From a virus: a stretch of DNA of 64,000 nucleotides. Below are positions 26,472 through 51,173 of the stretch, piece after piece. Within the stretch, counting starts at the first letter, position 1, and each line of letters begins with the position of its first letter. A program made the position numbers and the translations under genes. The stretch is from positions 1-64,000 of the IMG/VR virus record IMGVR_UViG_3300033149_004104; one strand, written 5' to 3'. The notes under the pieces were generated by a model. The model made no database searches, was not told the origin of the DNA, and saw only the letters and a list, made by a program, of their open reading frames with translations.

Positions 26472-27170
26472 ATGGGAGATTATACTATTAAAGAAGTACT
26501 TCAAATTACAGATAAATATTATCCAAATAGATTTACATATAAAGAACGTGATGTAGTAAAACGTATTGTTATAAAAGAAGTGAAAGAAGTACAACGACAT
26601 GATATTCCTGGAGGCCCGAGAGTATATACGAAATATGTTATTGAAAGCAAATCATGGCCACAGTATTATCCTTATTTTACTAGAACAGATAGCAGAGGTA
26701 GACGTAGACGCTATCAAAGAAGTGTAGCTCATTATTATGATGTAATATTCGAAACGGATAGATTGAGCTTAAATACTAAGAAATGGGTGGGTAGAGTTGG
26801 CAGTGGAAAAAAGTGGAATGCTAGACCGCCACAATCGCAAATAAAAAGTTTATATCCTGAAACAAGGGAAAAATTTAGAAGAAGGGCTAGAGGTAATCAA
26901 CAAGAATATAAGAGACTTGTAGAAAGACATAAAAGAAGTGCACCGTATCTTGATGTAGGCGATTATAATAGTAGAGTAAATGGAATTATGGGGGATTTTT
27001 GTTTTAGACAAGCTTGGGCATATTACACTCATGGCCATCTATTTGGAAGACAATATTATGGTAACGTACCTTCTTCAATTACAAATCCTAACGCTATTGT
27101 TTTTTTCGATAAACATCAATTAAATGTAATTGACCAACTTATGAGAAGAGGGATCTTAAAAGATGATTAA
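26472..27170 (+). CDS. Virion-associated basic protein
   Basis: 232 residues, arginine- and tyrosine-rich (S-R-G-R-R-R-R-Y-Q-R near 75; R-R-R-A-R-G near 135). A basic protein next to neck genes could contact DNA in the head-tail channel, but that is inference. The preceding 76-bp gap is AT-rich without a clear promoter motif; ribosome signal is weak. Its end overlaps the next gene by 8 bp. Confidence 0.55.
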   Translation: MGDYTIKEVLQITDKYYPNRFTYKERDVVKRIVIKEVKEVQRHDIPGGPRVYTKYVIESKSWPQYYPYFTRTDSRGRRRRYQRSVAHYYDVIFETDRLSLNTKKWVGRVGSGKKWNARPPQSQIKSLYPETREKFRRRARGNQQEYKRLVERHKRSAPYLDVGDYNSRVNGIMGDFCFRQAWAYYTHGHLFGRQYYGNVPSSITNPNAIVFFDKHQLNVIDQLMRRGILKDD

Positions 27171-27675
27171 GATTATAAATTTTAAAGAAAAGATTTATGG
27201 AAATATGGCAATAGTTTTCCATAGAACTAGCGTTTCAGATTTAGTAAATAAAGTTTTTACAAGTGGATTTAAACCTGGTACAGGAGATAAATATGGAAGA
27301 GGATTTTATGCTACTTATGAACTTGAGTCACAAGAGCGACCAGAAATGAAGAAATATGGAACCTGGAAAAATGGAACTTGGAGAAATGGAGTCTGAAAAG
27401 ACGGAACCTGGAAAAAAGGAATCTGGAAAGATGGGATTTGGGAAGACGGAGCTTGGGAAGGCGGGCAATGGGAAAAAGGAGTTTGGAAAAAAGGTACCTG
27501 GGAAAATGGGATTTGGGAGTATGGAACTTGGGAAAATGGAGATTGGAAAGATGGAATTTGGGAAAGTGGGGTGTGGAAAGGTGGAAAGATATGGAACCCT
27601 CAAACAAAAAAATATCAGTATAGTGACAAAAACCCTTATGATTGCGAATGGAGCTTGAGTTATTATAAAAGATAA
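27163..27675 (+). pseudogene. GTW-repeat protein with ART-like N-terminus, interrupted by TGA
   Basis: Residues about 15-65 carry F-H-R-T-S...G-F-K-P-G-T-G-D-K-Y-G-R-G-F-Y, resembling the start of ADP-ribosyltransferase-type folds. About 15 GTW units and the family C-terminal cap follow. The tryptophan codon of the third unit is TGA (27394-27396) instead of TGG; the frame then stays open to TAA 27673-27675. Genes in this window end with TGA (for example 4802-4804), so TGA is a stop here. Either a nonsense mutation, a read-through site or a sequencing error. The ATG overlaps the previous gene. Confidence 0.75.
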
Positions 27676-27708
27676 TAATATTTATGACATAAGGAGGGAG
27701 AGTAAAAC

Positions 27709-29001
27709 GTGATTAAAATATTTAAAAACCTGAACCTTCTTGAAAAGAAAGATCACATTATAAGAAAAATGCCCAATTTGACTAGTGAGCAGAAGGAAGA
27801 ACTAATAAACTTTTTCAATAGACACCCAAATTATGAAAATAGGGTCGATTGGAATAAGTGGAGAACTTTAACATACGAAGATTTTAAAGACATTCTTGAA
27901 ATTGAATCCAAAACTCAAAGGAAGAAATCCGTTAAGACAAGAGGAATAAAAGGACTAAAAGAGGGTAAGGATTATATTCAATTGAAGAATTTGCCCGACG
28001 ATATACAAGGATATATTCCTTTGAATTACGAGGCATCAAAATTTATTGCTTCTAGATATGTAGGAGGCATTGAAGGAAAATGGTGTACTGCATATCAAAA
28101 AACCGATAAATATTGGGAAGAATATAAAAGCTACGGGGTAATTTTTATATATTTAATCAAAGACAATGAAAAATATGCAATAGCTGTTTATCTCGACAAT
28201 AAAACTTATGAAATTTATAATAAAGATGACGATAAAATTTCTTTTATAGAAGGCATTAATATTAAATCAGATATATTAAATGATCGAAATGTTTCTCTTT
28301 TTGAAAAAGTAAGAAAAGAAATCGGTTTTGAACATTGGATTACCAAAGCTGAAATATCAAAGGATGCTAAGTTTGAATATGGCGAATTTAGGCAAATAGT
28401 TTGGTTAGATGGGGCGTGGTATAAAGGGACTTGGTATAACGGAATTTGGAAAAATGGAATTTGGAAAAATGGAACTTGGGAAGATGGTTCTTGGAAGAGT
28501 GGAACTTGGAAGAGTGGAACTTGGAAGTTTGGAACTTGGGAAGATGGAATATGGGAAAATGGAAATTGGATAATGGGATTATGGGAAGATGGAATTTGGA
28601 AAGACGGAACTTGGAAAGATGGAACTTGGGAGGATGGAACATGGAAAAGTGGAATTTGGAACAAAGGGGGATGGACAAAAGGGATATGGGAAGACGGAAT
28701 ATGGAAAAATGGAATTTGGGGTGGAGGAACCTGGGAAAGTGGAATTTGGAAGGATGGATCTTGGATTAAGGGGACGTGGATTAATGGAACTTGGGAATTT
28801 GGAACTTGGTATAACGGAATTTGGAAAAACGGAACTTGGAAAGATGGAACTTGGATTGATGGGGAATGGAAAGACGGAATCTGGAAAGATGGAGTATGGA
28901 AAGGTGGAAAAATATGGGATCCTCAAATAGAAAAATATCAATATAGTGACAAAAACCCCTATGATTGTGAATGGAGCTTAAGTTATTACAAAGAACAATA
29001 G
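27709..29001 (+). CDS. GTW-repeat protein, type A N-terminus
   Basis: 430 residues. Residues 1-225 are the type A domain: a basic start M-I-K-I-F-K-N-L, a helical P-N-L-T-S-E-Q-K-E-E-L region, then G-K-W-C-T-A-Y-Q-K and Y-A-I-A-V-Y. The W-C-T-A segment recalls a domain common in large-phage proteins. From about residue 228 there are 34 G-x-W-x-x units, then the cap K-I-W-D-P...Y-S-D-K-N-P-Y-D-C-E-W-S-L-S-Y. The array probably forms a Trp-stacked beta solenoid. GTG start with AGGAGGGAG. Function unknown; binding or virion-surface role is conjecture. Confidence 0.85.
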   Translation: MIKIFKNLNLLEKKDHIIRKMPNLTSEQKEELINFFNRHPNYENRVDWNKWRTLTYEDFKDILEIESKTQRKKSVKTRGIKGLKEGKDYIQLKNLPDDIQGYIPLNYEASKFIASRYVGGIEGKWCTAYQKTDKYWEEYKSYGVIFIYLIKDNEKYAIAVYLDNKTYEIYNKDDDKISFIEGINIKSDILNDRNVSLFEKVRKEIGFEHWITKAEISKDAKFEYGEFRQIVWLDGAWYKGTWYNGIWKNGIWKNGTWEDGSWKSGTWKSGTWKFGTWEDGIWENGNWIMGLWEDGIWKDGTWKDGTWEDGTWKSGIWNKGGWTKGIWEDGIWKNGIWGGGTWESGIWKDGSWIKGTWINGTWEFGTWYNGIWKNGTWKDGTWIDGEWKDGIWKDGVWKGGKIWDPQIEKYQYSDKNPYDCEWSLSYYKEQ

Positions 29002-29033
29002 TATTTATATTATAAAGATGGTGGTTGAGGGGC

Positions 29034-30311
29034 ATGATCAAAATATTTAAAAATTTAAACTTACTTGAAAAAAAAGATCATATTATAAGAAAAATACCTA
29101 ATTTGACTAATGAGCAGAAGGAGGAGCTGATAAACTTTTTCGATAAACACCCAAATTACGAAAATAGAATTGATTGGAACAGGTGGAGGACTTTAACATA
29201 CGAAGATTTTAAGGGTATTCTTGAAATTGAATCAAAGACTCAGAAAAAAAAATCCGTTAAGATAAGTGGAATAAAAGGACTAAAAGAGGGTGAGGATTAT
29301 ATTCAACTGAAAGGGTTGCCCGATGATACGCAAGGATACATACCTCTAAATTACGAGGCTTCAAAATTTATTGCTTCTAGATATGTAGGGGGTATCGAGG
29401 GGAGATGGTGTACAGCATATCAAAAAACTAGGGAATATTGGGAAAAATATACAAGTGAGAATATAATCTTAATTTATTTGATTAATAATAATACAAAATA
29501 TGCAATAGCCGTTTATCCAAATAATAAAACTCATAAAATTTATGATAGTGATGACAACAAAATTTCTTATATTCCCGGTATTGATATTAACCGAGATATA
29601 TTAAATAAAAGAAACATTTCTATTTTTGAAAAAATAAGAAGAGAAGTTGAAGACTATAAGCATTGGATTCATAAAGCTGAAATATCAAGAGACGCTAGAT
29701 TCGAAATTGATAAAACAAATCAAGTAATTTGGTACAAAGGGACTTGGGTAGATGGGGTATGGGAAAGGGGAACTTGGATTAATGGGATTTGGTTTGATGG
29801 TTATTGGGCAAAAGGAGCTTGGAAGAATGGAATTTGGAGAGGGGGAACTTGGGAAAAAGGAACTTGGGAAGACGGAACCTGGGAAAAAGGAATTTGGTAT
29901 GGCGGGACTTGGAAAGATGGAATTTGGGAACATGGAACTTGGAAAGATGGAACTTGGAAATATGGAACCTGGAAAAATGGAGTTTGGGAAAGTGGAACTT
30001 GGAAAGATGGAGTCTGGAAAAGCGGAACCTGGAAAAATGGAGCCTGGGAAAGCGGAACTTGGAAAGATGGAACCTGGAAGCTTGGAATCTGGGAACTTGG
30101 GACTTGGATTAATGGAACCTGGGAGTCTGGAACTTGGGAATATGGAACCTGGAAAGATGGAGTCTGGGAAGGTGGGGATTGGGACGATGGAAATTGGGAA
30201 AAGGGAGTATGGAAAGGTGGAAGGATATGGAATCCAGAAACAGGAAAATATCAATATAGCGATAAGAACCCAAACGAATGTGAATGGAGCTTAAGTTATT
30301 ACAAAAGATAA
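29034..30311 (+). CDS. GTW-repeat protein, type A N-terminus
   Basis: 425 residues from ATG 29034 (GGTGGTTGAGGGG upstream; the in-frame TTG at 29025 lies inside it). The type A domain is close to the previous gene through residue 220, with G-R-W-C-T-A. It then has an alternative linker V-E-D-Y-K-H-W-I-H-K that groups it with the genes at 30331, 32679 and 33945. About 33 GTW units and the standard cap follow. Several units read E-L-G or E-Y-G instead of K-D-G, so unit identity varies along the array. Confidence 0.85.
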   Translation: MIKIFKNLNLLEKKDHIIRKIPNLTNEQKEELINFFDKHPNYENRIDWNRWRTLTYEDFKGILEIESKTQKKKSVKISGIKGLKEGEDYIQLKGLPDDTQGYIPLNYEASKFIASRYVGGIEGRWCTAYQKTREYWEKYTSENIILIYLINNNTKYAIAVYPNNKTHKIYDSDDNKISYIPGIDINRDILNKRNISIFEKIRREVEDYKHWIHKAEISRDARFEIDKTNQVIWYKGTWVDGVWERGTWINGIWFDGYWAKGAWKNGIWRGGTWEKGTWEDGTWEKGIWYGGTWKDGIWEHGTWKDGTWKYGTWKNGVWESGTWKDGVWKSGTWKNGAWESGTWKDGTWKLGIWELGTWINGTWESGTWEYGTWKDGVWEGGDWDDGNWEKGVWKGGRIWNPETGKYQYSDKNPNECEWSLSYYKR

Positions 30312-30330
30312 TAATATGGGGGAGTAAAAC

Positions 30331-31473
30331 GTGATTAAAATATTTAAAAATCTGAACCTTCTTGAAAAAAAAGATCACATTATAAGAAAAATACCTAATT
30401 TGACTAGTGAACAGAAGGAGGAGCTAATAAATTTTTTCAATAAACACCCAAATTACGAGAACAGAATTGATTGGAATAAGTGGAAAACTTTAACATACGA
30501 AGATTTTAAAGACATTCTAGGGATTGAATCTAAGACTCAAAGGAAAAAATCCGTTAAGATAAGTGGAATAAAAGGATTAAAAGAGGGCGAGGATTATATT
30601 CAATTGAAGAATTTGCCTGACGATACGCAAGGATATATCCCTTTGAATTACGAGGCTTCAAAATTTATTGCTTCTAGATATGTAGGGGGTATCGAGGGGA
30701 AATGGTGTACAGCATACCAAAAAACTAGGGAATATTGGGAAGAATATAAAAGTGATAGGATAATTTTTATATATTTAATCAAAGACAATGAAAAATATGC
30801 AATAGCCGTTTATCCTGACAATAGAACTTATGAAGTTTATGATAAAAATGATAACAAAATTTCTTATATTCCCGGTATTGATATTAAACGAGATATATTA
30901 AATAAAAAAAATATTTCTATTTTTGAAAAAATAAAAAGAGAAGTTGAAGACTACAAGCATTGGATTTATAAAGTTAAAATATCAAAAGACGCTAGATTTG
31001 AAATTGATAAGACGAATCGGGTATTTTGGTATGAAGGGACTTGGATAGATGAGGTATGGGAAAGTGGAACCTGGAAAGATGGAACTTGGCTTGATGGTTA
31101 TTGGACAGATGGAACTTGGGAGAATGGAACCTGGGAAAATGGTACTTGGGAATATGGAATCTGGGAAAATGGGGTTTGGAAAGACGGAATTTGGAAAGAT
31201 GGAACTTGGTTGAAGGGGGTTTGGAAAGAGGGAATTTGGAAAAATGGAGTTTGGGAAAATGGAACTTGGGAAGATGGGACATGGGAGGATGGGTTTTGGG
31301 AAAATGGAATCTGGAAAGATGGAACTTGGAAAGATGGAACTTGGAAGGATGGAATCTGGAAAGACGGAGTGTGGAAAGGTGGAAAGATATGGAACCCTCA
31401 AACAAAAAAATATCAGTATAGTAACAAAAACCCCTATGATTGTGAATGGGGTTTAAGCTATTACAAGAAATAA
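30331..31473 (+). CDS. GTW-repeat protein, type A N-terminus, short array
   Basis: 380 residues, GTG start with GGGGGA upstream, 19 bp after the previous gene. Complete type A domain (W-C-T-A-Y-Q-K near 128). Only about 24 GTW units, ten fewer than in the 27709 gene, then the cap ending G-L-S-Y-Y-K-K. One unit has Glu in place of Gly (T-W-I-D-E). Length difference by whole 15-bp units indicates expansion/contraction by recombination. Confidence 0.85.
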   Translation: MIKIFKNLNLLEKKDHIIRKIPNLTSEQKEELINFFNKHPNYENRIDWNKWKTLTYEDFKDILGIESKTQRKKSVKISGIKGLKEGEDYIQLKNLPDDTQGYIPLNYEASKFIASRYVGGIEGKWCTAYQKTREYWEEYKSDRIIFIYLIKDNEKYAIAVYPDNRTYEVYDKNDNKISYIPGIDIKRDILNKKNISIFEKIKREVEDYKHWIYKVKISKDARFEIDKTNRVFWYEGTWIDEVWESGTWKDGTWLDGYWTDGTWENGTWENGTWEYGIWENGVWKDGIWKDGTWLKGVWKEGIWKNGVWENGTWEDGTWEDGFWENGIWKDGTWKDGTWKDGIWKDGVWKGGKIWNPQTKKYQYSNKNPYDCEWGLSYYKK

Positions 31474-31509
31474 TAATACTTATATTATAAAAATGGGGGG
31501 TTGAGGGGC

Positions 31510-32298
31510 ATGATCAAAATATTTAAAAATTTGAACCTTCTTGAAAAAAAAGATCACATTATAAGAAAAATGCCCAATTTAACTAGTGAACAGAAGGAAG
31601 AAATAATAAATTTTTTTAATAAGTGTCCAAATTACGAGAATGGAATTGATTGGAACGAGTGGGAAACTTTAATATATGAAGATTTTAAGAATATTCTTAA
31701 AATTGATCCCAGAATTCAAGGAAGGGAATTTGTTAAAATAAGCGGAATAAAAGAATTAAAGAGGGGTGATGATTATATTCAATTGAAGAAAGCCCCTAAT
31801 AATGTGCAAGAATACACCCCCTTAGATTATAAAGCGTCAAAATTTATTATTTCTGAAAAAGAAATCGGTTTTGAGCATTGGATTACCAAAGCTGAAATAT
31901 TAAAGGAGGCTAAATTTAAATTTGATGGGCCTACACAAATAATTTGGTTAAGTGGAACTTGGAAAAACGGAACTTGGAAAAACGGAACTTGGAAGGATGG
32001 GATTTGGGAAAACGGAACCTGGCAAACTGGAACTTGGGAAAATGGAACTTGGAAAAACGGAACTTGGGAAGACGGAATTTGGAAAAATGGAACTTGGAAA
32101 TTTGGAACTTGGAAAGGTGGGGTTTGGAATGATGGGATTTGGGTAATGGGAATTTGGAAAGATGGAAATTGGAAAGATGGAGCATGGAAAGGCGGGGAGA
32201 TATGGAATCTAGAAACAAGAAAATATGAATATAGCGATAAAAACCCATACGAATGTGAATGGAGTTTAAGTTATAGAAAGTTTCCATATCAATATTAA
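31510..32298 (+). CDS. GTW-repeat protein with shortened type A domain
   Basis: 262 residues from ATG 31510. The first 110 residues follow type A, but the sequence jumps from Y-K-A-S-K-F-I-I-S to K-E-I-G-F-E-H-W. About 90 residues that include the W-C-T-A segment are missing. The part after the jump matches the 27709 gene better than its neighbours. Seventeen GTW units and the cap follow, with an odd end F-P-Y-Q-Y. It may be a natural deletion mutant that keeps the frame, or a variant with a different activity. Confidence 0.8.
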   Translation: MIKIFKNLNLLEKKDHIIRKMPNLTSEQKEEIINFFNKCPNYENGIDWNEWETLIYEDFKNILKIDPRIQGREFVKISGIKELKRGDDYIQLKKAPNNVQEYTPLDYKASKFIISEKEIGFEHWITKAEILKEAKFKFDGPTQIIWLSGTWKNGTWKNGTWKDGIWENGTWQTGTWENGTWKNGTWEDGIWKNGTWKFGTWKGGVWNDGIWVMGIWKDGNWKDGAWKGGEIWNLETRKYEYSDKNPYECEWSLSYRKFPYQY

Positions 32299-32311
32299 AA
32301 AGAGGTGTGTT

Positions 32312-32545: not shown

Positions 32546-32628
32546 TACTAAGATATGAAAAGATAGATTAAGATGATGCTTGGTTAGAAAAATGATTACA
32601 ATTTTTGAATTTTAAGAAAAAACTTATA

Positions 32629-32642
32629 GAGTTTAAGTTATA
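32629..32642 (+). other. Possible scar of a lost GTW gene
   Basis: GAGTTTAAGTTATA in the gap before 32679 equals the DNA that encodes the end of the GTW cap (W-S-L-S-Y) in several paralogues. Fourteen bases only, so chance cannot be excluded. Confidence 0.3.
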
Positions 32643-32678
32643 ATAAAAAATAGATTAGAGAGATATGCGGTATAAAAG

Positions 32679-33911
32679 ATGGTTAGAATATTCAAAAATT
32701 TAAATTTACTCGAAAAGAAAGATCATATTATAAGAAAAATGCCCAATTTGACTAGTGAACAAAAAGAAGAGCTGATAAATTTCTTTAGTAGGCATCCTAA
32801 CTATGAAAATAGAATTGATTGGAATAAGTGGAAAACTTTAACATACGAAGATTTTAAAGACATTCTAGGAATTGAATCAAAGACTCAAAGAAAGAAATCT
32901 GTTAAGATAAGTGGAATAAAAGGATTAAAAGAGGGCAAGGATTATATTCAACTGAAAGGGTTGCCTGACGATATGCAAGGATACATTCCTTTAAACTATG
33001 AGGCATCAAAATTTATTGCCTCTAAATATGTAGGAGGCATCAAAGGAAAATGGTGCACAGCATATCGAAAAAGTAAGGAATATTGGGAAAAATATACAAG
33101 TAAGAGTATAATCTTAATTTATTTGATTGGTAATAATACAAAATATGCAATATCCGTTTATCTAGATAATAGAACTTATGAAATTTATGATAGTAAGGAT
33201 AACAAAATTTCTTATATTCCCGGTATTGATATTAAACGAGATATATTAAATAAAAGAAATATTTTTATTTTTGAAAAAATAAGAAGAGAAGTTGAAGACT
33301 ACAAGCATTGGATTTATAAAGTTAAAATATTAAAAGGCGCTAGATTTGAAATTGATAAGACAAATCAAGTAATTTGGTATAAAGGAATTTGGATAGATGG
33401 AGTATGGGAAAGGGGAACTTGGGTTAATGGAGTTTGGCTTGATGGTTATTGGACAGATGGAACTTGGGAAGACGGAACTTGGAAAGAGGGGACTTGGGAA
33501 AAGGGAACCTGGAAAGACGGAACCTGGGAAAAAGGAATTTGGTATGGCGGGATTTGGAAAGATGGGATCTGGGAATTTGGAACTTGGAAAGATGGAACTT
33601 GGAAAGGGGGGACTTGGGAAAAGGGTACTTGGGAAGACGGAACTTGGGAAGATGGCTTCTGGGAAAACGGAACTTGGGAAGATGGGACTTGGCTGGAGGG
33701 GGTTTGGAAAGATGGAACTTGGGAAGACGGAACTTGGGAAGATGGAACTTGGAAATATGGAGTCTGGGAAGGTGGAGTTTGGAAAGATGGAATTTGGGAA
33801 AGTGGAGTGTGGGAAGGTGGAAAGATATGGAACCTGAAAACAAAAAAATATAAATATAGCGATAAGAACCCATACGAATGTGAATGGAGTTTGAGTTATT
33901 ACAAAAGATAA
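32679..33911 (+). CDS. GTW-repeat protein, type A N-terminus
   Basis: 410 residues, ATG start but no strong ribosome site (GAGAG 24 nt upstream). Full type A domain with G-K-W-C-T-A-Y-R-K. About 30 GTW units, enriched in E-D-G and K-D-G, then a cap with N-L-K-T-K-K-Y-K-Y-S-D. Its first eight units (W-Y-K-G, W-I-D-G, W-E-R-G ...) mirror those of the 29034 and 33945 genes, so array starts are more conserved than array middles. Confidence 0.85.
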   Translation: MVRIFKNLNLLEKKDHIIRKMPNLTSEQKEELINFFSRHPNYENRIDWNKWKTLTYEDFKDILGIESKTQRKKSVKISGIKGLKEGKDYIQLKGLPDDMQGYIPLNYEASKFIASKYVGGIKGKWCTAYRKSKEYWEKYTSKSIILIYLIGNNTKYAISVYLDNRTYEIYDSKDNKISYIPGIDIKRDILNKRNIFIFEKIRREVEDYKHWIYKVKILKGARFEIDKTNQVIWYKGIWIDGVWERGTWVNGVWLDGYWTDGTWEDGTWKEGTWEKGTWKDGTWEKGIWYGGIWKDGIWEFGTWKDGTWKGGTWEKGTWEDGTWEDGFWENGTWEDGTWLEGVWKDGTWEDGTWEDGTWKYGVWEGGVWKDGIWESGVWEGGKIWNLKTKKYKYSDKNPYECEWSLSYYKR

Positions 33912-35177: not shown

Positions 35178-35183
35178 GAACGA

Positions 35184-36050: not shown

Positions 36051-36299
36051 ATGACAGATATTGAAATTTTTTTACAAAGAAACATGGACAGGATGGATAG
36101 GGACACGTTGATAGGGGTGATGGCCGATAAATTTAATTTGAGCTTGGAACAAGCAGAAGAAATAATTATGGAAAGGGAAAAAATAAGAAAAAAAGAATCC
36201 CTTATAACAGTAACAAGATCTTTTTTAATAGAGACGAATAATATAGTTTTTGCTTTAGAAAAAGGGGATAAAATTAATATATTACATAGAGTTGAGTAA
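36051..36299 (+). CDS. Small protein with KGDKI module
   Basis: 82 residues. A helical N-terminal half (F-N-L-S-L-E-Q-A-E-E-I-I-M) is joined to the shared module at 51-78 (L-E-K-G-D-K-I-N-I-L), three residues before the end. It is essentially a carrier for the module. The stop overlaps the next ATG (T-A-A-T-G), so it is translationally coupled to the type D GTW gene, which has the same module. Confidence 0.68.
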   Translation: MTDIEIFLQRNMDRMDRDTLIGVMADKFNLSLEQAEEIIMEREKIRKKESLITVTRSFLIETNNIVFALEKGDKINILHRVE

Positions 36300-43030: not shown

Positions 43031-43049
43031 CAAACAAGGGGATTGATTG

Positions 43050-44522
43050 ATGATCATTATAAGAAAATTAAATGAATATTTATCAGGATTTGATTATCGT
43101 CTTCCTGATGACCCCGAATTGATTTTATACGATTTCTATTTCTTAACTACTTACGGGAACGATATAGAAACAAATATGCCTGAGGCGGACTTCGCAATAA
43201 AGGAGGCTTCTGATAAAATTGTAGAGAGTCTTCATGCCCACATGTTAAAGGCAGTAAAATATGCGCTATGTAGTGAAATTAGACATATTTTCGATGGATT
43301 AAGAGATATTGAATCTCTTGAAGAATTAGCAAAAATGGATAAAAAAATAAATAGATTTGTTAATTCATATTCTAGAAATTATGAATTAAGTACTGGTATT
43401 GATCTTACGAATCGAGAACTTCGAGGTGTACTTACAAAAGAAACAGAATCAAGCAGACTAGCCTCTTATGAAGCTATTATTGAAACACAAAAAGAATTAA
43501 ATATGACAAATATGGAATTGGCTAAAATTTTTAGTAGCCTGTTTTTAGAATTAGATTGGAAACGTGATTACGGGGGAAGAGCTTGGGATATGATAGTTGA
43601 TGGATATAAAATGCTTCTGAAAGCTAAGAGGAAAAATGAAAAAATCATTGCCATCGATCACACTTATGATTTACAGCATAATACTGATACGGTTTTTAAT
43701 AAACTGCAGATATACTATAAAGATAGCTCTGGATATGGGTGGATTAGAAGAGCGTTAAATTGGAAAAAGGATGTAGAAGATATTCGTTTTTTTTATGAAA
43801 AAGTATCACCTCAACTACGGAGAATAGTAGCTTTTATAGCGTATAATGTGTACGGACTTACAATGGAAGATAAATCTTATCAGCATAGAGTTTGGACAGG
43901 CGGAATTTGGGCGGGGGGAACTTGGAATGATGGAATTTGGAAAAATGGGATTTGGAAAGATGGAACTTGGAATGACGGGGCTTGGATTAACGGAACCTGG
44001 GAGAAAGGAGCCTGGAGAAATGGAATTTGGAAAAATGGAATATGGCAAAATGGAACCTGGGAGCTTGGAACCTGGGAAAATGGTACTTGGGAATATGGAA
44101 TTTGGGAAAACGGTACTTGGAAATATGGAACTTGGTTTTACGGAACTTGGAAAAATGGAACTTGGGAAGACGGGGAATGGAAAGATGGGGTCTGGGAATA
44201 TGGAGTTTGGAAAAATGGAGTTTGGAAGTATGGAACTTGGTATAATGGAACCTGGGAAAACGGGACTCGAGAAAGTGGAACATGGCTAGAAGGGGTTTGG
44301 AAAAATGGAGTTTGGGAAGATGGTACTTGGTTGTATGGAGTTTGGAAAGATGGGGTTTGGAATGATGGAATCTGGGAAAATGGGATTTGGGAAGATGGAA
44401 TTTGGAGAAACGGAGCTTGGGAGGGTGGCAAAATATGGAATCCTAAAACAAGAGAATATGAATATAGTAATAAAAACCCATACAAGTGTGAATGGAGTTT
44501 AAGCTATAGAAAAGAGCGATAA
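43050..44522 (+). CDS. GTW-repeat protein, type B N-terminus
   Basis: 490 residues from ATG 43050 (AAGGGG upstream; TTG 43047 is adjacent). Type B domain, about 280 residues: L-P-D-D-P-E-L-I-L-Y-D-F-Y, then M-L-K-A-V-K-Y-A-L, D-H-T-Y-D-L-Q-H-N-T and a C-terminal V-A-F-I-A-Y-N-V-Y-G. This copy is the most divergent: it lacks the L-D-F-L-L-D-D segment of the others. About 36 GTW units, one with Arg for Trp (T-R-E-S-G), and the family cap. Type B has no known function to me. Confidence 0.84.
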   Translation: MIIIRKLNEYLSGFDYRLPDDPELILYDFYFLTTYGNDIETNMPEADFAIKEASDKIVESLHAHMLKAVKYALCSEIRHIFDGLRDIESLEELAKMDKKINRFVNSYSRNYELSTGIDLTNRELRGVLTKETESSRLASYEAIIETQKELNMTNMELAKIFSSLFLELDWKRDYGGRAWDMIVDGYKMLLKAKRKNEKIIAIDHTYDLQHNTDTVFNKLQIYYKDSSGYGWIRRALNWKKDVEDIRFFYEKVSPQLRRIVAFIAYNVYGLTMEDKSYQHRVWTGGIWAGGTWNDGIWKNGIWKDGTWNDGAWINGTWEKGAWRNGIWKNGIWQNGTWELGTWENGTWEYGIWENGTWKYGTWFYGTWKNGTWEDGEWKDGVWEYGVWKNGVWKYGTWYNGTWENGTRESGTWLEGVWKNGVWEDGTWLYGVWKDGVWNDGIWENGIWEDGIWRNGAWEGGKIWNPKTREYEYSNKNPYKCEWSLSYRKER

Positions 44523-44540
44523 AACAAAGGTCTGTCAGCA

Positions 44541-46091
44541 ATGATTAAAATAATTCGAGTAAAGCCAAAAATAAAAGAAATCTTCTCAAACTTTGTATAC
44601 AGAATGCCTGATGATCCTGAGTTGATTTTATACGATTTTTATTTCTTAACTACTTACGGAAAAAATATAGAAACAAACATGCCCGAAGCAGATTTTGCGA
44701 TAAACGAAGCGGTCGAACAGATTATTGAAAATCTTCATGCACACATGTTAAAGGCTGTAAAATATGCTCTATGCGCTGAGATTCGTCATATTTTTGATTC
44801 TACAGCAGCTGAATCATTAAAGCAATTAGTTGAAAAAAACAAGAACATTGGAACCTTTATCAAGACATATTATAAAAAATATATCACTTTTACAGAAATA
44901 AGTAGAACACCGCTTGATTTCTTACTTGATGATAGATCGGGGGAGGCTGACAGATTAAGAAACGTTCTTTCTAAAGAGACAGATTCAAAAAGAAAAAGCT
45001 CATACAGGGCAGTTACAGAGACACAAAAAGATTTAAAGATAACAAACTCTGAACTGTCAAAAATATTTGAATACGTATTCTTAAAGCTTGTTTGGCAACC
45101 ACAATTCGGAGGCCCAGCATGGGCCGATATTGCCAAAGCTTATTATAGACTTCTAAGGGCTAAGAGGAAAAACGAAAAAATCATTGCCATTGACCATGCC
45201 TATGATTTACAGCATAACACCGATACGGTTTTTAATAAGTTGCAGATATACTATAAAGATGGTTATAGTTGGATTAAAGATGCTTTGGATTGGAAAAGAG
45301 ATGTAAAGGATATTCGATCTTTTTACAATAAAGTTTCTCCTCAATTAAGGAGAATAGTAGCCTTCATAGCATACAATGTATATGGGCTTACAATGGAGGG
45401 AGGAACTCCTCGTTCAGTTGATCAAGATAAAATCTGGACGAGGGGGCTCTGGAAGGGGGGAACCTGGACAGGAGAAATTTGGAAATATGGAATTTGGGAG
45501 AAAGGAACTTGGAAAGGCGGGACTTGGAAAGATGGAATTTGGAAAGACGGAACTTGGGAAGATGGAATTTGGAAAGACGGAATTTGGAAAAATGGAACTT
45601 GGAAAAATGGAACTTGGAAGGGTGGAACTTGGGAAAGTGGAAGTTGGAGAAATGGAATTTGGGAAGATGGGATTTGGAAAGAAGGTGATTGGGAAAATGG
45701 AACTTGGAAAGATGGATTCTGGATGTACGGATATTGGAAAAATGGTACCTGGAAGAGCGGAACTTGGAAAGATGGGATTTGGAAAAGTGGAACCTGGAAA
45801 AATGGAACTTGGAGATATGGAACTTGGAAAAGTGGAACTTGGAAAAATGGAACCTGGAGGGATGGGATCTGGGAAAATGGAACTTGGGAAGATGGAACTT
45901 GGTTTAAAGGGGTTTGGAAAAATGGAACTTGGAAAAATGGAACTTGGGAAAATGGATTTTGGAAAGATGGGGTTTGGGAAGGCGGAATATGGAAGAGTGG
46001 GGAGATATGGAATCCGGAGACAGATGAATATGAATATAGTGATAGAAATCCATACGAATGTGAATGGAGTTTAAGTTATAGAAAAGGATAA
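44541..46091 (+). CDS. GTW-repeat protein, type B N-terminus
   Basis: 516 residues, ATG preceded by the leader C-A-G-C-A that is also found before the 47911 and 49740 copies. Type B domain complete, with L-D-F-L-L-D-D-R-S and S-W-I-K-D-A-L-D-W-K. A short polar linker (G-T-P-R-S-V-D-Q-D) leads to about 38 GTW units and the cap. Near-identity of the domain with the next three copies implies recent duplication or gene conversion. Confidence 0.85.
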   Translation: MIKIIRVKPKIKEIFSNFVYRMPDDPELILYDFYFLTTYGKNIETNMPEADFAINEAVEQIIENLHAHMLKAVKYALCAEIRHIFDSTAAESLKQLVEKNKNIGTFIKTYYKKYITFTEISRTPLDFLLDDRSGEADRLRNVLSKETDSKRKSSYRAVTETQKDLKITNSELSKIFEYVFLKLVWQPQFGGPAWADIAKAYYRLLRAKRKNEKIIAIDHAYDLQHNTDTVFNKLQIYYKDGYSWIKDALDWKRDVKDIRSFYNKVSPQLRRIVAFIAYNVYGLTMEGGTPRSVDQDKIWTRGLWKGGTWTGEIWKYGIWEKGTWKGGTWKDGIWKDGTWEDGIWKDGIWKNGTWKNGTWKGGTWESGSWRNGIWEDGIWKEGDWENGTWKDGFWMYGYWKNGTWKSGTWKDGIWKSGTWKNGTWRYGTWKSGTWKNGTWRDGIWENGTWEDGTWFKGVWKNGTWKNGTWENGFWKDGVWEGGIWKSGEIWNPETDEYEYSDRNPYECEWSLSYRKG

Positions 46092-46128
46092 TTATTATTA
46101 GAAAGTTATAAAAAGGGAAGTAATAATA

Positions 46129-47892
46129 ATGATTAAAATAGTTCGAGTAAAACCGAAAATAAAAGAAATTTTCTCAAACTTTGTATATAGGATGCCTAAA
46201 GATCCCGAGTTAATTCTGTACGATTTTTATTTTTTGACTACTTACGGGAAAGATATAGAAACAAATATGCCTGAGGCTGACTTTGCAATAAAGGAGGCTT
46301 CTGATGAAATTGTAGAATCCCTTCATACCCACATGCTAAAGGCAGTAAAATATGCCCTGTGTGCCGAGATTCGTCATATTTTTGATGCTATAGCAACCGA
46401 ATCATTGAAACGATTGGTTGGGGAAAACAAGAATATAGGGGCATTTATTAAAGTGTACTATAGAAAATATCTTGCCTTTATAGAAATAGGTAAAGTACCG
46501 CTTGACTTTTTACTCGATGATAGATCGGAGGAGGCTGGCAGATTAAGAAACGTTCTCTCTAAAGAAACTGATTTGAAAAGGAAAAGCTCATATAGAGCGA
46601 TTGCAGAAACGCAAAAAGAGTTGAAGATAACAAATTCGGAACTGTCAAAAATATTTGAATATTTATTCTTAAATCTTATTTGGTATTCACAATTCGGAGG
46701 TTTTGCATGGGCCGATATTGCCGAAGCTTATTATAGACTTTTAAAGGCTAAGAGGAAAAATGAAAAAATCATTGCTATAGATCATGCCTATGATTTGCAA
46801 CACAATACCGATATAGTTTTCAATAAATTACGGCTATATTACAAAGATGGTTATAGTTGGATTAAAAGAGCACTGGATTGGAAAAAGAATGTGAAGGATA
46901 TTCGATCTTTTTACAAAAAAGTTTCTCCTCAATTAAAGAGAATAGTAGCCTTCATAGCATACAATGTATACGGGCTTACAATGGAGGGGGGAACTCCTCG
47001 TTCAGTTGATCAAGATAGAATCCGGACAGGAAGATCCTGGGAGGGAGGAACCTGGACAGGGGGAATCTGGGAAAACGGGACTTGGGAAAAAGGAACCTGG
47101 GAAAACGGAACCTGGAAAAACGGAACTTGGAAACTTGGAATCTGGGAACTTGGGACTTGGGAAAATGGAACTTGGGAGTCTGGGACTTGGGAATATGGAA
47201 CCTGGAAAAATGGAGTCTGGAAAGACGGAGATTGGGAAGATGGAATTTGGAAGGGAGGAATTTGGGAATATGGAACTTGGATGAGTGGAGTCTGGAAATT
47301 TGGAACTTGGAAAGACGGAACATGGGAAAATGGGGTTTGGGAAAAAGGAATTTGGGAAAAAGGAACTTGGAAAAGTGGAGCTTGGAAGAACGGGGTTTGG
47401 AAAAATGGAACTTGGAAAGATGGAAGATGGGAAGATGGAATCTGGAAAGATGGAACTTGGGAAGACGGGGTTTGGAAAAATGGAACTTGGGAAAATGGGA
47501 CTTGGGAAAATGGAATTTGGTTAGAAGGGATCTGGAAAAATGGAACTTGGAAAAACGGAACTTGGGAATATGGATTCTGGAAAAATGGGGTTTGGAAAGA
47601 TGGAACTTGGGAAGATGGAACATGGGGAGAGGGGGTCTGGAAAGAAGGAATTTGGAAGGGAGGAATTTGGGAATACGGAACTTGGAATAATGGAATTTGG
47701 AAATTCGGAACCTGGAATAATGGAATTTGGAATAATGGGATTTGGGAAGATGGAGTGTGGAAAGATGGGGTTTGGAAAGATGGAGCATGGAAAGGTGGGG
47801 AAATATGGAATCCAAAGACAAATGAATATGAATATAGTAATAAAAACCCATACGAATGTGAGTGGGGTTTAAGTTATAGAAAAGAGCAATAA
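46129..47892 (+). CDS. GTW-repeat protein, type B N-terminus, long array
   Basis: 587 residues. Type B domain with small differences from its neighbours (R-M-P-K-D-P; F-A-W-A-D-I-A-E-A). About 51 GTW units; near the end several units have Asn (W-N-N-G), unlike elsewhere. The cap reads E-I-W-N-P-K-T-N-E-Y. AAAAAGGGAAG lies upstream of the ATG. Confidence 0.85.
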   Translation: MIKIVRVKPKIKEIFSNFVYRMPKDPELILYDFYFLTTYGKDIETNMPEADFAIKEASDEIVESLHTHMLKAVKYALCAEIRHIFDAIATESLKRLVGENKNIGAFIKVYYRKYLAFIEIGKVPLDFLLDDRSEEAGRLRNVLSKETDLKRKSSYRAIAETQKELKITNSELSKIFEYLFLNLIWYSQFGGFAWADIAEAYYRLLKAKRKNEKIIAIDHAYDLQHNTDIVFNKLRLYYKDGYSWIKRALDWKKNVKDIRSFYKKVSPQLKRIVAFIAYNVYGLTMEGGTPRSVDQDRIRTGRSWEGGTWTGGIWENGTWEKGTWENGTWKNGTWKLGIWELGTWENGTWESGTWEYGTWKNGVWKDGDWEDGIWKGGIWEYGTWMSGVWKFGTWKDGTWENGVWEKGIWEKGTWKSGAWKNGVWKNGTWKDGRWEDGIWKDGTWEDGVWKNGTWENGTWENGIWLEGIWKNGTWKNGTWEYGFWKNGVWKDGTWEDGTWGEGVWKEGIWKGGIWEYGTWNNGIWKFGTWNNGIWNNGIWEDGVWKDGVWKDGAWKGGEIWNPKTNEYEYSNKNPYECEWGLSYRKEQ

Positions 47893-47910
47893 AATAAGGA
47901 GCTATCAGCA

Positions 47911-49701
47911 ATGATTAAAATAATTCAAGTAAAATCAAAAATGAAAGAAATTTTCTCAAATTTTGTATACAGGATGCCCAAAGATCCTGAGTTAATTTTG
48001 TACGATTTTTATTTCTTGACTACTTACGGGAACGATATAGAAACAAATATGCCTGAGGCTGATTTTGCAATAAAAGAGGCTTCTGATGAAATTGTTGAAA
48101 ATCTTCATGCACACATGCTAAAGGCAGTAAAATATGCCCTGTGTGCCGAGATTCGTCATATTTTTGATGCTACAGCAATTGAATCATTAAAACAATTGGT
48201 TGAGAAAAACAAGAACATTGGGGCTTTTATTAAAATGTACTATAAAAAATATCTCACCTTTACAGATGTAGGTAAGGCCCCACTTGATTTTTTACTTGAT
48301 GATAGATCGGGCGAGGCTGACAGATTAAGAAATGTTCTCTCTAAAGAAACCGATTTAAGAAGAAAATGCTCATACAGAGCAGTTACAGAGACACAAAAAG
48401 AGTTGAGGATAACAAACTCTGAACTGTCAAAAATATTTGAATACCTATTTTTGAATCTTGTCTGGCAATCACAATTCGGTGGTTCAGCATGGGCTGATAT
48501 TGCCAAATCTTATTATATGCTTTTAAAAGCCAAGAGGAAAAATGAAAAAATCATCGCTATTGATCATGCTTACGATTTGCAACATAATACCGATACGGTT
48601 TTCAATAAATTACAGTTATATTATAAAGACGGTTATAGTTGGATTAGAAATGCTTTAGATTGGAAAAGGGATGTAGATGATATTCGTTCTTTTTATGAAA
48701 AAGTTTCCCCCCAGCTAAGGAGAATAGTGGCATTTATAGCATACAATGTATATGGGATTACGATGGAGGGGTGGCTTTCCCATTCAGTTGATCAAGATAA
48801 AATTTGGACAGGGGGGTCCTGGAAAGGAGGAACTTGGACAGGAGGGACTTGGGAAAATGGGACATGGGAAAAAGGAATTTGGGAAAACGGTATTTGGGCG
48901 GGTGGAACTTGGGTAAGTGGGGCCTGGAAAGATGGAGTTTGGGAAAGTGGAACTTGGAAATTCGGAACTTGGACGGATGGGACTTGGGAAAATGGAACTT
49001 GGGAAAATGGGATTTGGGAATATGGAACTTGGAAAGATGGAACTTGGATATATGGAATTTGGAAAAACGGAACTTGGTTATTTGGAACTTGGTATGACGG
49101 GATTTGGAAAAAGGGGGTCTGGATATATGGAACTTGGAAAAATGGAACTTGGGAAGATGGAACTTGGAAAAATGGAACCTGGAAAGATGGAACTTGGAGA
49201 AATGGAGTCTGGAAAGATGGAACCTGGAAAAATGGAGTCTGGGAACTTGGAACCTGGAAAGATGGAGTTTGGGAAAGTGGAATTTGGAAATATGGAACTT
49301 GGAAGCTTGGAATCTGGGAACTTGGGACTTGGGAAAATGGAATTTGGGAAGATGGGGATTGGGAAGATGGAACCTGGAAAAATGGAATTTGGAAAGGTGG
49401 GGATTGGGAAGATGGAACCTGGAAAGACGGGATCTGGGAACTTGGAACTTGGAAAGATGGAGTTTGGAAAAGTGGAACTTGGGAGGATGGAGTTTGGAAA
49501 AGTGGAACTTGGGAAAATGGAGCCTGGACAATGGGGACTTGGGAAGATGGGATCTGGGAAAATGGAACTTGGAAAGAAGGAACCTGGAAAGACGGGATAT
49601 GGAAAGGTGGGGGGATATGGAATCCAGAAACAAAAGAATATGAATATAGTAATAAAAACCCATACGAGTGTGAGTGGAGTTTAAGCTATAGAAAGAGATA
49701 A
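47911..49701 (+). CDS. GTW-repeat protein, type B N-terminus, longest array
   Basis: 596 residues and about 54 GTW units, the longest array in the window; if each unit is one strand-turn, a long rod would result. Type B domain typical, with V-Y-G-I-T-M-E-G-W-L at its end. An internal block around units 33-36 (W-K-Y-G, W-K-L-G, W-E-L-G, W-E-N-G) resembles a block in the 46129 array, pointing to exchange between genes. Ribosome site AAGGAG, leader C-A-G-C-A before ATG. Confidence 0.85.
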   Translation: MIKIIQVKSKMKEIFSNFVYRMPKDPELILYDFYFLTTYGNDIETNMPEADFAIKEASDEIVENLHAHMLKAVKYALCAEIRHIFDATAIESLKQLVEKNKNIGAFIKMYYKKYLTFTDVGKAPLDFLLDDRSGEADRLRNVLSKETDLRRKCSYRAVTETQKELRITNSELSKIFEYLFLNLVWQSQFGGSAWADIAKSYYMLLKAKRKNEKIIAIDHAYDLQHNTDTVFNKLQLYYKDGYSWIRNALDWKRDVDDIRSFYEKVSPQLRRIVAFIAYNVYGITMEGWLSHSVDQDKIWTGGSWKGGTWTGGTWENGTWEKGIWENGIWAGGTWVSGAWKDGVWESGTWKFGTWTDGTWENGTWENGIWEYGTWKDGTWIYGIWKNGTWLFGTWYDGIWKKGVWIYGTWKNGTWEDGTWKNGTWKDGTWRNGVWKDGTWKNGVWELGTWKDGVWESGIWKYGTWKLGIWELGTWENGIWEDGDWEDGTWKNGIWKGGDWEDGTWKDGIWELGTWKDGVWKSGTWEDGVWKSGTWENGAWTMGTWEDGIWENGTWKEGTWKDGIWKGGGIWNPETKEYEYSNKNPYECEWSLSYRKR

Positions 49702-49739
49702 CAAAATAATAAAATTATAGAAAAAAGGGGTTGCCAGCA

Positions 49740-51173
49740 ATGATTAAAATAATTCGAGTAAAACCAAAAATAAAAGAAATTTTCTCAAATTTTGTATACA
49801 GGATGCCTGATGATCCTGAGTTAATTCTGTATGATTTCTATTTCTTGACTACTTATGGGAAAGATATAGAAACAAACATGCCTGAGGCTGATTTTGCGAT
49901 AAACGAAGCGGTCGAACAGATTATTGAAAATCTTCATACCCACATGTTGAAGGCAGTAAAATATGCCTTGTGTGCCGAGATTCGTCATATTTTTGATGCT
50001 ACAGCAACCGAATCATTAAAACAATTAGTTGAAAAAAATAAGAACATTAGAACCTTTATCAAGACATATTATAAAAAATATATCACTTTTACAGAAATAA
50101 GTAGAACACCGCTTGACTTTTTACTCGATGATAGATCGGGCGGGGCTGATAGATTAAGAAACGTTCTTTCTAAAGAAACAGATTCAAAAAGAAAAAGCTC
50201 ATACAGGGCAATTACAGAGACACAAAAAGAGTTAAAGATAACAAACTTGGAACTGTCAAAAATATTTGAATACCTATTTTTGAATCTTGTCTGGCAATCA
50301 CAATTCGGTGGTTCAGCATGGGCTGATATTGCTAAATCTTATTACATGCTTTTAAAAGCCAAAAGGAAAAATGAAAAAATCATTGCCATTGATCATGCCT
50401 ATGATTTGCAGCATAATACTGATACGGTTTTTAATAAGTTGCAGATATACTATAAAGATGGTTATAGTTGGATTAGAGATGCTTTGGATTGGAAAAGGGA
50501 TGTAGAAGATATTCGATTTTTTTACAATAAAGTATCGCCTCAACTACGGAGAATAGTAGCTTTTATAGCGTACAATGTATATGGGATTACGATGGAGGAT
50601 AAACTTTATCAACATGGAGTTTGGACAGGGGGAGCTTGGAAAGGTGGAATTTGGACAGGAGGGACTTGGAAAAAAGGTACTTGGATATATGGAACATGGG
50701 AAAATGGTATTTGGGAAGACGGAACTTGGGAAAGTGGAACTTGGAAAAACGGAACTTGGAAAAACGGAACTTGGAAATTCGGAACTTGGGTAGACGGAAC
50801 TTGGAAAAGAGGTACTTGGGAAAACGGGGTTTGGCAAAATGGAACATGGAAAGATGGAACTTGGATATATGGAATTTGGAAAAGTGGAATTTGGAAAAAT
50901 GGATTCTGGGAGGACGGAATTTGGGAACTTGGAACTTGGGAAAATGGAGATTGGAAGAACGGAACTTGGAGGGATGGGATTTGGAAAGATGGAATTTGGA
51001 AAAATGGAATATGGCAAAATGGAACCTGGGAAAAAGGAGTTTGGAAAGATGGAGTTTGGAAAGATGGAATTTGGAAAAACGGCAAAATATGGAACTCAGA
51101 GACAAGAGAATATGAATATAGTAATAAAAACCCATACGAGTGTGAGTGGAGTTTAAGTTATGGTAAAAAATAA
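49740..51173 (+). CDS. GTW-repeat protein, type B N-terminus
   Basis: 477 residues from ATG 49740 (AAAAAAGGGG upstream; an in-frame TTG at 49731 lies in the leader). The type B domain is mosaic. Its first half matches the 44541 copy (I-N-E-A-V-E-Q-I-I-E-N), its middle the 47911 copy, and its end (M-E-D-K-L-Y-Q-H) the 43050 copy. About 31 GTW units and a cap K-I-W-N-S-E-T-R-E-Y follow. Last gene of cluster II. Confidence 0.85.
   Translation: MIKIIRVKPKIKEIFSNFVYRMPDDPELILYDFYFLTTYGKDIETNMPEADFAINEAVEQIIENLHTHMLKAVKYALCAEIRHIFDATATESLKQLVEKNKNIRTFIKTYYKKYITFTEISRTPLDFLLDDRSGGADRLRNVLSKETDSKRKSSYRAITETQKELKITNLELSKIFEYLFLNLVWQSQFGGSAWADIAKSYYMLLKAKRKNEKIIAIDHAYDLQHNTDTVFNKLQIYYKDGYSWIRDALDWKRDVEDIRFFYNKVSPQLRRIVAFIAYNVYGITMEDKLYQHGVWTGGAWKGGIWTGGTWKKGTWIYGTWENGIWEDGTWESGTWKNGTWKNGTWKFGTWVDGTWKRGTWENGVWQNGTWKDGTWIYGIWKSGIWKNGFWEDGIWELGTWENGDWKNGTWRDGIWKDGIWKNGIWQNGTWEKGVWKDGVWKDGIWKNGKIWNSETREYEYSNKNPYECEWSLSYGKK

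What the first reader, a model, noticed from the sequence alone, without database searches (positions are those of the whole stretch)
27163..51173. Thirteen paralogues with GTW pentapeptide solenoids (~425 units)
Over a quarter of the window encodes proteins with arrays of G-[T/I/V]-W-x-x, 15 to 54 units each, and a constant C-terminal cap (W-x-P...Y-S-x-K-N-P-Y-x-C-E-W-S-L-S-Y). This is neither the classical pentapeptide repeat (A-[D/N]-L-x-x) nor MORN, though the W-x-x-G spacing is somewhat MORN-like. One Trp every five residues suggests a solenoid with a stacked Trp face. Near-identical 15-bp DNA units make array length free to change by recombination. Possible roles: variable adhesins, virion rods, or binders delivered to the host.
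Basis: partly seen in the sequence, partly recalled or inferred. Interest (0 to 1): 0.9.

Follow-up and report, generated by a model that had tools for sequence, protein, structure and literature searches.

The report
Gly-Trp pentapeptide repeat genes in phage
A phage carries thirteen related genes, slotted into its particle-building operon, whose proteins end in long arrays of a five-residue Gly-x-Trp repeat; the repeat is predicted to fold like a pentapeptide beta-helix but is missed by the family libraries searched, and other phages use the same array behind quite different front domains.

Summary
The observation mostly holds. Thirteen genes (27163-51173) encode 426 in-phase G-x-W-x-x units, 15 to 54 per gene, with one shared C-cap; g1 is broken by a TGA. 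The claim of near-identical 15-bp DNA units is wrong: 279 of 426 are distinct. Pfam names no repeat family. The register (G-[T/I/V]-W-[K/E]-[D/N]) copies that of pentapeptide repeats with the two core residues changed, A to G and L/F to W. In two AlphaFold models the confident part of the array superposes on the SV2 luminal domain, a known pentapeptide beta-helix (rmsd about 3 A over about 80 residues, Z about 6: suggestive only). The genes lie between capsid and tail-sheath genes. A largely collinear relative (26 of 33 other window genes matched) lacks all three blocks, so they look like accessory insertions, not core virion parts. Other phages carry such arrays behind further N-domain kinds; two pattern-based scans of bacterial and archaeal genomes confirmed none. 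Best reading: accessory, probably virion-borne proteins in which a Gly/Trp variant of the pentapeptide beta-helix is a stalk of adjustable length for interchangeable N-domains. Virion placement is inferred. Verdict: new variant of a known kind.

The parts
27163..27675 (+). g1: remnant. Part of an 'HRT..YGRGFYATYELESQ' N-domain, then 15 GxW units (array 27358-27582) with an in-frame TGA, then the cap
   Evidence: N-part 60% identical over 55 aa to the N-domain of the second L056 array protein, E 4e-24
27709..29001 (+). g2: N-domain A + 35 units (array 28381-28905) + cap (GTG start)
29034..30311 (+). g3: N-domain A + 33 units (29724-30218) + cap (ATG chosen by alignment; one search lists an earlier TTG at 29025)
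30331..31473 (+). g4: N-domain A + 24 units (31021-31380) + cap (GTG start); protein modelled as m152f8778c587
31510..32298 (+). g5: domain A with a large internal deletion + 17 units (31939-32193) + cap (ATG chosen; one search lists TTG at 31501)
32679..33911 (+). g6: N-domain A + 30 units (33369-33818) + cap; the only array gene that differs, in one sibling contig
33945..35132 (+). g7: N-domain A + 27 units (34635-35039) + cap; shares 56 nt exactly with the end of the g3 array
36299..37276 (+). g8: own short N-part with a GDKI-type box + 35 units (36659-37183) + cap
43050..44522 (+). g9: N-domain B + 36 units (43887-44426) + cap (ATG chosen; one search lists TTG at 43047)
   Evidence: domain B matches phrog_20946, unknown function, E 2.5e-8
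44541..46091 (+). g10: N-domain B + 38 units (45429-45998) + cap
46129..47892 (+). g11: N-domain B + 51 units (47032-47796) + cap
47911..49701 (+). g12: N-domain B + 54 units (48799-49608) + cap, the longest array
49740..51173 (+). g13: N-domain B + 31 units (50616-51080) + cap (ATG chosen; one search lists TTG at 49731); protein modelled as m6817dad64adb
23380..24819 (+). major head protein upstream of the cluster (context)
   Evidence: phrog_138 E 2.3e-8, phrog_1014 E 9.8e-21
55540..57117 (+). tail sheath downstream of the cluster (context)
   Evidence: phrog_23 E 2.4e-30

Best explanation
The 13 genes are an expanded set of accessory genes inserted at three points of the conserved head-to-tail operon of a contractile-tailed phage. 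Each protein is a module: an N-terminal domain (A in six genes, one of them internally deleted; B in five; a remnant of a third type in g1; a short GDKI-box part in g8), then a Gly/Trp variant of the pentapeptide-repeat beta-helix (about four units per coil, so about 4 to 13.5 coils), then a fixed C-terminal cap. Proposed working: made late with the particle proteins, the protein joins the particle or its assembly line; the rigid beta-helix is a stalk whose length changes by whole units and which presents or spaces the N-domain. Trp (position i) and Gly (position i-2) fill the core in place of Leu/Phe and Ala. Shown: sequence anatomy, register, selection on the N-domains, place in the operon, absence of the blocks from a largely collinear relative, reuse with other N-domains elsewhere. 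Predicted: beta-helix fold. Inferred: late expression, virion association, stalk role.
For: Register and count. Fold: in the model of g4 the array (residues 231-310 at pLDDT about 70-82) aligns best to SV2 luminal domains (4jra_D Z 5.8, rmsd 3.2, 80 aligned; 12 of the first 14 rows are SV2 chains); the separate model of g13 aligns to SV2A/SV2B at Z 6.4/6.2, rmsd 2.9, 78 aligned. SV2C-LD is a pentapeptide-repeat beta-helix (PMC8145042, passages read). BFVD models of other phage proteins match (11 at E<=0.001 for g4; for g13 one, PspYZU05, and a marine-phage protein at rmsd 0.6 over 45 columns though E 0.2). Operon: major head protein upstream; sheath, two tube proteins and tape measure downstream. 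Relative G016: 26 of 33 tested non-array window genes have homologues, nearly all in the same order, while g1-g7, g8 and g9-g13 are missing; a single array gene sits elsewhere in the same operon; domains A and B not found there. Elsewhere: of 10 flanking proteins that I picked in four loci, 6 matched head, neck or tail families: head-tail adaptor, head closure and sheath stabilizer among the L021 arrays, portal near L024, sheath near L027, head protein near L028; 4 matched none; in L023 a portal lies one gene from the arrays. N-domains A (5 of 6 genes) and B are under purifying selection, dN/dS 0.08-0.18 in 20 of 20 paralogue pairs. The phage has its own baseplate and tail-fibre genes. Two genome-collection scans confirmed no relative; the same g8 query confirmed 24 stretches, 17 loci, in viral contigs, six of the loci in the three siblings.
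Against: Z about 6 is not decisive: Foldseek against PDB has nothing below E 0.099; for g13 other solenoid proteins (acetyltransferases, GMPPA, VTC1; left-handed beta-helices from memory) score Z up to 8.1, above SV2, though at rmsd about 11; and coordinates could not be inspected for handedness or for where Trp points. Only part of each array is confident: g4 residues 311-350 are at pLDDT 46-54, g13 residues 371-447 at 27-53, and g13 as a whole at 49. A random-placement test of array position against head/portal/sheath genes in 12 records is not significant (combined p 0.75); gaps are 58 kb in PspYZU05, 37 kb in G015 and 18 kb in G017; 7 further records held none of the three marker families. 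Flanking proteins were chosen because they looked structural. No proteomics exist here. No four-unit periodicity was found in the variable positions. 15 of 43 array proteins compared have only a short N-part, so the N-domain is not always there.
Confidence: 0.45

Rival explanations
1. Packaged or injected effectors: the N-domains are enzymes or host-binding payloads carried in the head and ejected with the DNA (as recalled for T4 Alt), and the array plus cap is a packaging or passenger part.
For: N-domains differ between phages while the array is kept. The g1 remnant and L056 carry an 'HRT..G..YG.GFY.TY' domain that resembles ADP-ribosyltransferases from memory. GDKI boxes recur in head-tail genes and in g8.
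Against: No ART or other enzyme family is detected: Pfam and PDB give nothing convincing. 15 of 43 array proteins have fewer than 60 residues before the N-cap region.
Confidence: 0.2
2. A MORN-like open beta-sheet that binds lipid or cell wall, as the 'phosphatidylinositol 4-phosphate 5-kinase 5-like' label on the PspYZU05 relative suggests.
For: W-x-x-G spacing; the database label on PspYZU05.
Against: MORN repeats are 23 residues with GxG and YEGEW motifs (PMC7725318, passages read); period 5 is a different spacing. No Pfam MORN hit, even for the g12 array alone at E 5. The low-rmsd solved matches are SV2 beta-helices.
Confidence: 0.12
3. An intracellular pentapeptide-type inhibitor or scaffold, for example a DNA-mimic gyrase inhibitor like MfpA/Qnr.
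For: Pentapeptide register; three arrays are acidic (g6 -12.0, g4 -10.8 and g7 -8.1 net charges per 100 residues).
Against: The other 10 of 13 lie within 5 charges per 100 residues of neutral, some basic (g10 +3.7); all 13 lie in the head-tail operon; large N-domains are unlike MfpA/Qnr (recalled).
Confidence: 0.08
4. Decaying repeat junk: selfish expansion of a simple repeat without function.
For: g1 carries a nonsense codon; g5 has a deleted N-domain.
Against: Low dN/dS in both N-domain sets; G and W kept at 97-99% while synonymous sites vary; 12 of 13 frames open.
Confidence: 0.05

Closest known systems
Pentapeptide repeat proteins (Pfam PF00805 superfamily; beta-helix as in the SV2C luminal domain, 4JRA)
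   Same: Five-residue period, same register (small, variable, bulky, polar, polar), more than 8 contiguous units, predicted beta-helix whose low-rmsd solved matches are SV2 luminal domains
   Different: G instead of an A-type residue at i-2 (6 of 426 fit the published consensus) and W instead of L/F at i (1 of 426 fits); no Pfam hit; occurs as the C-terminal module of multi-copy phage genes with own caps
MORN repeats
   Same: G-x-W and W-x-x-G spacing; kinase-type database label, which I take for a MORN match, on a phage relative
   Different: Period 5, not 23 (PMC7725318); no Pfam hit
phrog_20946 (phage family of unknown function)
   Same: Matches part of domain B in g9-g13, E 2.5e-8 to 2.7e-10, and the N-terminal part of a protein in L011
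   Different: Best stretch covers about 80-90 residues; says nothing of the array
Phosphatidylinositol 4-phosphate 5-kinase 5-like protein of Pseudomonas phage PspYZU05 (ASD52006.1)
   Same: 22-unit GxW array after the same kind of N-cap
   Different: One annotated gene in the stretch read, short N-part, lies about 58 kb from the virion marker genes
Giant proteins of huge phages (LR756502, LR745206, LR756504)
   Same: GxW/GxF patches; in LR756502 and LR745206 after the same N-cap motif
   Different: Patches within proteins of 1.7-4.9 thousand residues, not tandem small genes; the stretch of LR756501 read in the same way gave no such frame

Membership tests
Pentapeptide repeat protein (PRP) | At least eight contiguous five-residue repeats (PMC8145042) | tested here: met
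   15-54 contiguous in-phase units in 13 of 13 genes; those of g1 include a stop
Pentapeptide repeat protein (PRP) | Consensus (A/C/S/V/T/L/I)(D/N/S/K/E/I/R)(L/F)(S/T/R/E/Q/K/V/D)(G/D/E/N/R/Q/K) | tested here: not met
   By position 6, 130, 1, 362 and 335 of 426 units fit: both core positions fail, the two last positions mostly fit
Pentapeptide repeat protein (PRP) | Match to a Pfam pentapeptide model | tested here: not met
   0 families for 9 of the 13 full proteins at E<=0.01; 0 for the g12 array alone at E<=5
Pentapeptide repeat protein (PRP) | Right-handed quadrilateral beta-helix, four repeats per coil | tested here: inconclusive
   Two AlphaFold models; SV2 luminal domains at Z 5.8 and 6.4, rmsd 3.2 and 2.9; handedness not inspectable
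MORN repeat protein | 23-residue repeat with GxG, G10 and YEGEW (PMC7725318) | tested here: not met
   Strict period 5; no Pfam hit
MORN repeat protein | Beta-hairpin sheet fold | tested here: inconclusive
   MORN structures are not among the rows shown, which does not exclude them
Virion structural or appendage protein | Present in purified virions | not testable with these tools
   Only gene position: between head and tail genes, accessory in relative G016
ADP-ribosyltransferase (g1 and L056 N-domain) | Detectable homology to a solved or curated ART | tested here: inconclusive
   No Pfam hit, no PDB hit below E 0.69; the motif resemblance is recalled

The most novel reading that the evidence does not exclude
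A phage-specific modular system: a previously unnamed Gly/Trp-core pentapeptide beta-helix, often with its own N-cap motif and with several C-cap types, serves as an interchangeable carrier for at least eight sequence groups of N-terminal part in accessory virion-borne proteins, with copy number and length expanded in some lineages to 13 genes.
Probability: 0.3. Interest if true: 0.8.

Novelty: new variant of a known kind. Interest (0 to 1): 0.58.

Why it matters
It would add a Gly/Trp-core class to the pentapeptide beta-helices, one that the searched libraries miss and that recurs across phages, including huge ones. Trp at every fifth residue in a solenoid core would be an unusual packing solution. 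The comparison with a largely collinear relative separates accessory cargo from core virion genes, and a cultured phage (PspYZU05) with a GxW array gene makes fold and role testable.

Tried and rejected
Search of the record for a hand-made 30-base pattern: no match. Megablast of window 1000-25000 against named phages: no match. Near-identical DNA units: rejected. Four-unit periodicity in residues 2, 4, 5 as a sign of coil faces: absent; of 70 values the largest were position-5 Gly at lag 1 (z 3.8) and position-4 charge at lag 3 (z -3.3). Recombination between arrays: four exact shared blocks, g3/g7 56 nt, g5/g13 45, g9/g13 43 and g3/g6 39, exceed the maxima of 32-37 nt in 20 shuffles. Kinship of domain A with the L023 N-domain: no. 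Solved structures by sequence: array, domain A, domain B and the L056 N-domain give nothing below E 0.17. TGA read as Trp in g1: not favoured, since 5 of 62 listed ORFs end in TGA and no tRNA was found in the window. Array position versus head/portal/sheath genes: not significant over 12 records; 7 records without markers and the duplicate record G019 were left out of that test. Charges first computed had wrong array bounds for several genes; one search replaces them. The regular expression for the N-cap was written after looking at the flanks. MORN structures do not appear among the rows shown. Literature: the rows listed show no paper on GxW pentapeptide arrays in phages, to judge by titles and abstract starts; several of these searches held many more papers than were listed, and subscription journals are largely not held.
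Full report
What is there. The window is bases 1-64000 of a 135,563-bp virus record. Thirteen genes on the + strand between 27163 and 51173 end in arrays of G-x-W-x-x and a common cap. Counted in phase from the cap there are 426 units. Position 1 is G in 413 of 426, position 2 mostly T (207), I (108) or V (60), position 3 W in 423, position 4 mostly K (178) or E (148), position 5 mostly D (135), N (103) or G (43). The array places found in the record all fall in this stretch (30 of 30). The DNA units are not near-identical: 279 of 426 are distinct and mean identity within 12 arrays is 0.67-0.72. The Gly codon keeps G at its first two bases in 97-98% of units but its third base is A in only 74%, which is what selection on the protein would give.

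Anatomy. g2, g3, g4, g6 and g7 share N-domain A (74-81% identity to g2); g5 has it with a large deletion. g9-g13 share domain B (69-88% identity to g12), which matches phrog_20946, unknown function. g8 has its own short N-part with a GDKI box. g1 starts with residues that are, over 55, 60% identical to the N-domain of an array protein in another phage (L056), then runs into 15 units and meets a TGA where Trp is expected; g1 is letter-identical in three sibling contigs. Because 5 of 62 listed ORFs end in TGA I read g1 as broken. dN/dS between paralogous N-domains is 0.12-0.18 for 10 of 10 A pairs (g5 left out) and 0.08-0.16 for 10 of 10 B pairs, with dS above 1 in some pairs, so the copies are under constraint.

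Fold. Pfam finds no family in nine of the 13 proteins at E 0.01 nor in the g12 array at E 5. AlphaFold of g4 with 11 rows gave mean pLDDT 69.5; array residues 231-310 are at about 70-82 but 311-350 at 46-54. Foldseek against PDB found nothing with E below 0.099, but VIA-align put SV2 luminal domains first for the array (model residues 222-342 in all): 4jra_D Z 5.8, rmsd 3.2, 80 aligned; 12 of the first 14 rows are SV2 chains. A second model, g13 (mean pLDDT 49; residues 301-370 at about 66-86, the rest of the array after that 27-53), gave SV2A and SV2B at Z 6.4 and 6.2, rmsd 2.9, 78 aligned; acetyltransferases, GMPPA and VTC1 (left-handed beta-helices, recalled) score as high or higher (up to Z 8.1) but at rmsd about 11. 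The tool warns that Z under 8 may mean only a common arrangement. In the viral structure library 11 matches to g4 had E<=0.001, among them the PspYZU05 relative; for g13 one did, the same protein. According to a review of pentapeptide repeat proteins (PMC8145042, passages read) SV2C-LD is a pentapeptide beta-helix, each coil holds four repeats, and the consensus is (A/C/S/V/T/L/I)(D/N/S/K/E/I/R)(L/F)(S/T/R/E/Q/K/V/D)(G/D/E/N/R/Q/K). The window units fit it at 6, 130, 1, 362 and 335 of 426 for the five positions: the last two fit, the two core positions do not. My inference is volume compensation in the core, Gly plus Trp in place of Ala plus Leu or Phe. At four units per coil 15-54 units make about 4 to 13.5 coils; with a rise of about 4.8 A per coil (recalled) that is roughly 2 to 6.5 nm, so short stalks rather than long rods.

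Place in the genome. Upstream lie the major head protein and homologues of the L024 portal and of the gene after it (L024 portal: phrog_213, E 1.3e-7). Downstream lie tail sheath, two tube proteins, a weak baseplate-hub match and tape measure, then, beyond the window, baseplate hub and wedge, tail-fibre and a 2,240-residue tail protein. The phage thus has ordinary tail machinery apart from the arrays.

A natural experiment. Record G016 (147,158 bp; L057, L066, L067) carries homologues (phmmer E<=1e-3) of 26 of 33 tested non-array window genes. They are in the same order except that 35184 and 35667 are swapped and 22583 matches, weakly, genes at other places that share its GDKI box. Between the homologues that flank g1-g7 there are 490 bp with two small ORFs; between those that flank g8, 18 bp; those flanking g9-g13 are about 1.2 kb apart with two other genes. 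Domains A and B were not found in G016 (the tool notes that an empty answer alone shows little). It has one array gene of its own, without an N-domain (16 to 18 units by two ways of counting), between homologues of window genes 39037 and 40528. So the array genes look like accessory insertions at several points of a conserved particle-building operon.

Relatives. Six scans of viral contigs brought in arrays behind other N-parts. Of 43 array proteins in the window and 20 loci, 28 have at least 60 residues before the N-cap region; by blastp at E<=1e-3 these fall into eight groups: A (window, L021, L048), B (window), g8, L022, L023, L024, L027 with L058, and L056; 15 have a short N-part, g1 among them because of its stop. 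The stretch before the array often holds a motif W[LIVF]xxA...: 23 of 41 distinct N-flanks against 1.0 on average and at most 5 in 200 shuffles (written after looking, flanks not independent, and at least one match lies in domain B). C-caps fall, by eye, into several classes: '..CEWSLSY' (window, and CKWSLSY in L026), 'DSPDKW' (L021, L047, L048, L056, L059), 'DPDRKG' types (L024, L057, and L027 less closely), 'MWSN' (L030, L031, and L061 less closely), 'KCKW' (L025, L055), 'GKPENA' (L023). Of 10 flanking proteins that I picked as likely structural in L021, L024, L027 and L028, 6 matched head, neck or tail families and 4 none; in L023 a portal is one gene away. But a placement test over 12 records is not significant (p 0.75), many contigs being short, and the PspYZU05, G015 and G017 arrays lie 58, 37 and 18 kb from the nearest marker. 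Two scans of the bacterial and archaeal genome collection confirmed no relative (8 and 3 pattern matches, none confirmed), whereas the g8 query confirmed 24 stretches among viral contigs, siblings included. The scans rest on six octapeptides each, so absence is not proof.

Array length. In three sibling contigs 12 of 13 genes are letter-identical to the window in all three; g6 differs in one contig, where that stretch aligns with one mismatch and no gap. The contigs are near-identical, so this says little about variation. L030 and L031, with 99% identical downstream DNA, differ by exactly five residues, one unit, between array start and cap, so length does change between related phages.

Conclusion. 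Accessory, probably late and probably virion-borne modular proteins whose C-terminal part is a Gly/Trp variant of the pentapeptide beta-helix. I do not file it in PF00805, because consensus and HMM tests fail; I say it probably folds and works like one. Papers: passages were read in PMC8145042, PMC7725318, PMC9238414, PMC7824862 and PMC8093824; others were seen only in listings. PMC9238414 reports MORN and pentapeptide repeat annotations enriched in long-read marine viral data, which may hide arrays like these (speculation).

Noticed in passing
window 19660-20049, 22583-23200, 36051-36299, 36299-37276, 52630-53139; L057 six genes; L024:13753-14070: A recurring box of about 25 residues, 'I.I...v.I....IiL.KGDKI.IL', in five window genes of the head-tail region and six genes of L057; a related form is in 35184-35636. 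Possibly a shared assembly or targeting element.
   Followed up: partly
window 51223-52566: N-terminal half holds 'HCSGGVGRSG', the signature of dual-specificity or tyrosine phosphatases (recalled); PHROGs labels the family thymidylate synthase. No homologue found in the stretches of the relative G016 that were read.
   Followed up: no
L011:7953-11777: Domain B is the N-terminus of a 1,274-residue protein, next to genes that look like baseplate genes by eye; in L003 it heads two tandem proteins with other C-terminal parts.
   Followed up: partly
L048:4162-5475: Domain A fused to a coiled-coil-like stretch instead of a GxW array, right after an A + array gene: the N-domain also swaps its C-terminal partner.
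   Followed up: no
window about 39999-40054: Sibling contig 3300033153_010210 is 63 bp shorter over the compared stretch, the difference lying here, inside gene 39037-40452, while the arrays keep their lengths.
   Followed up: no
L047:87-1121: A domain-A array gene whose array continues in another reading frame, a frameshift by mutation or sequencing error.
   Followed up: no
L004, L006 and L007 (huge-phage records): GxW/GxF patches inside open frames of 1,699, 1,920 and 4,869 residues; those of L004 and L006 also hold stretches that look like photosystem-assembly-factor/BNR propeller repeats (recalled).
   Followed up: no
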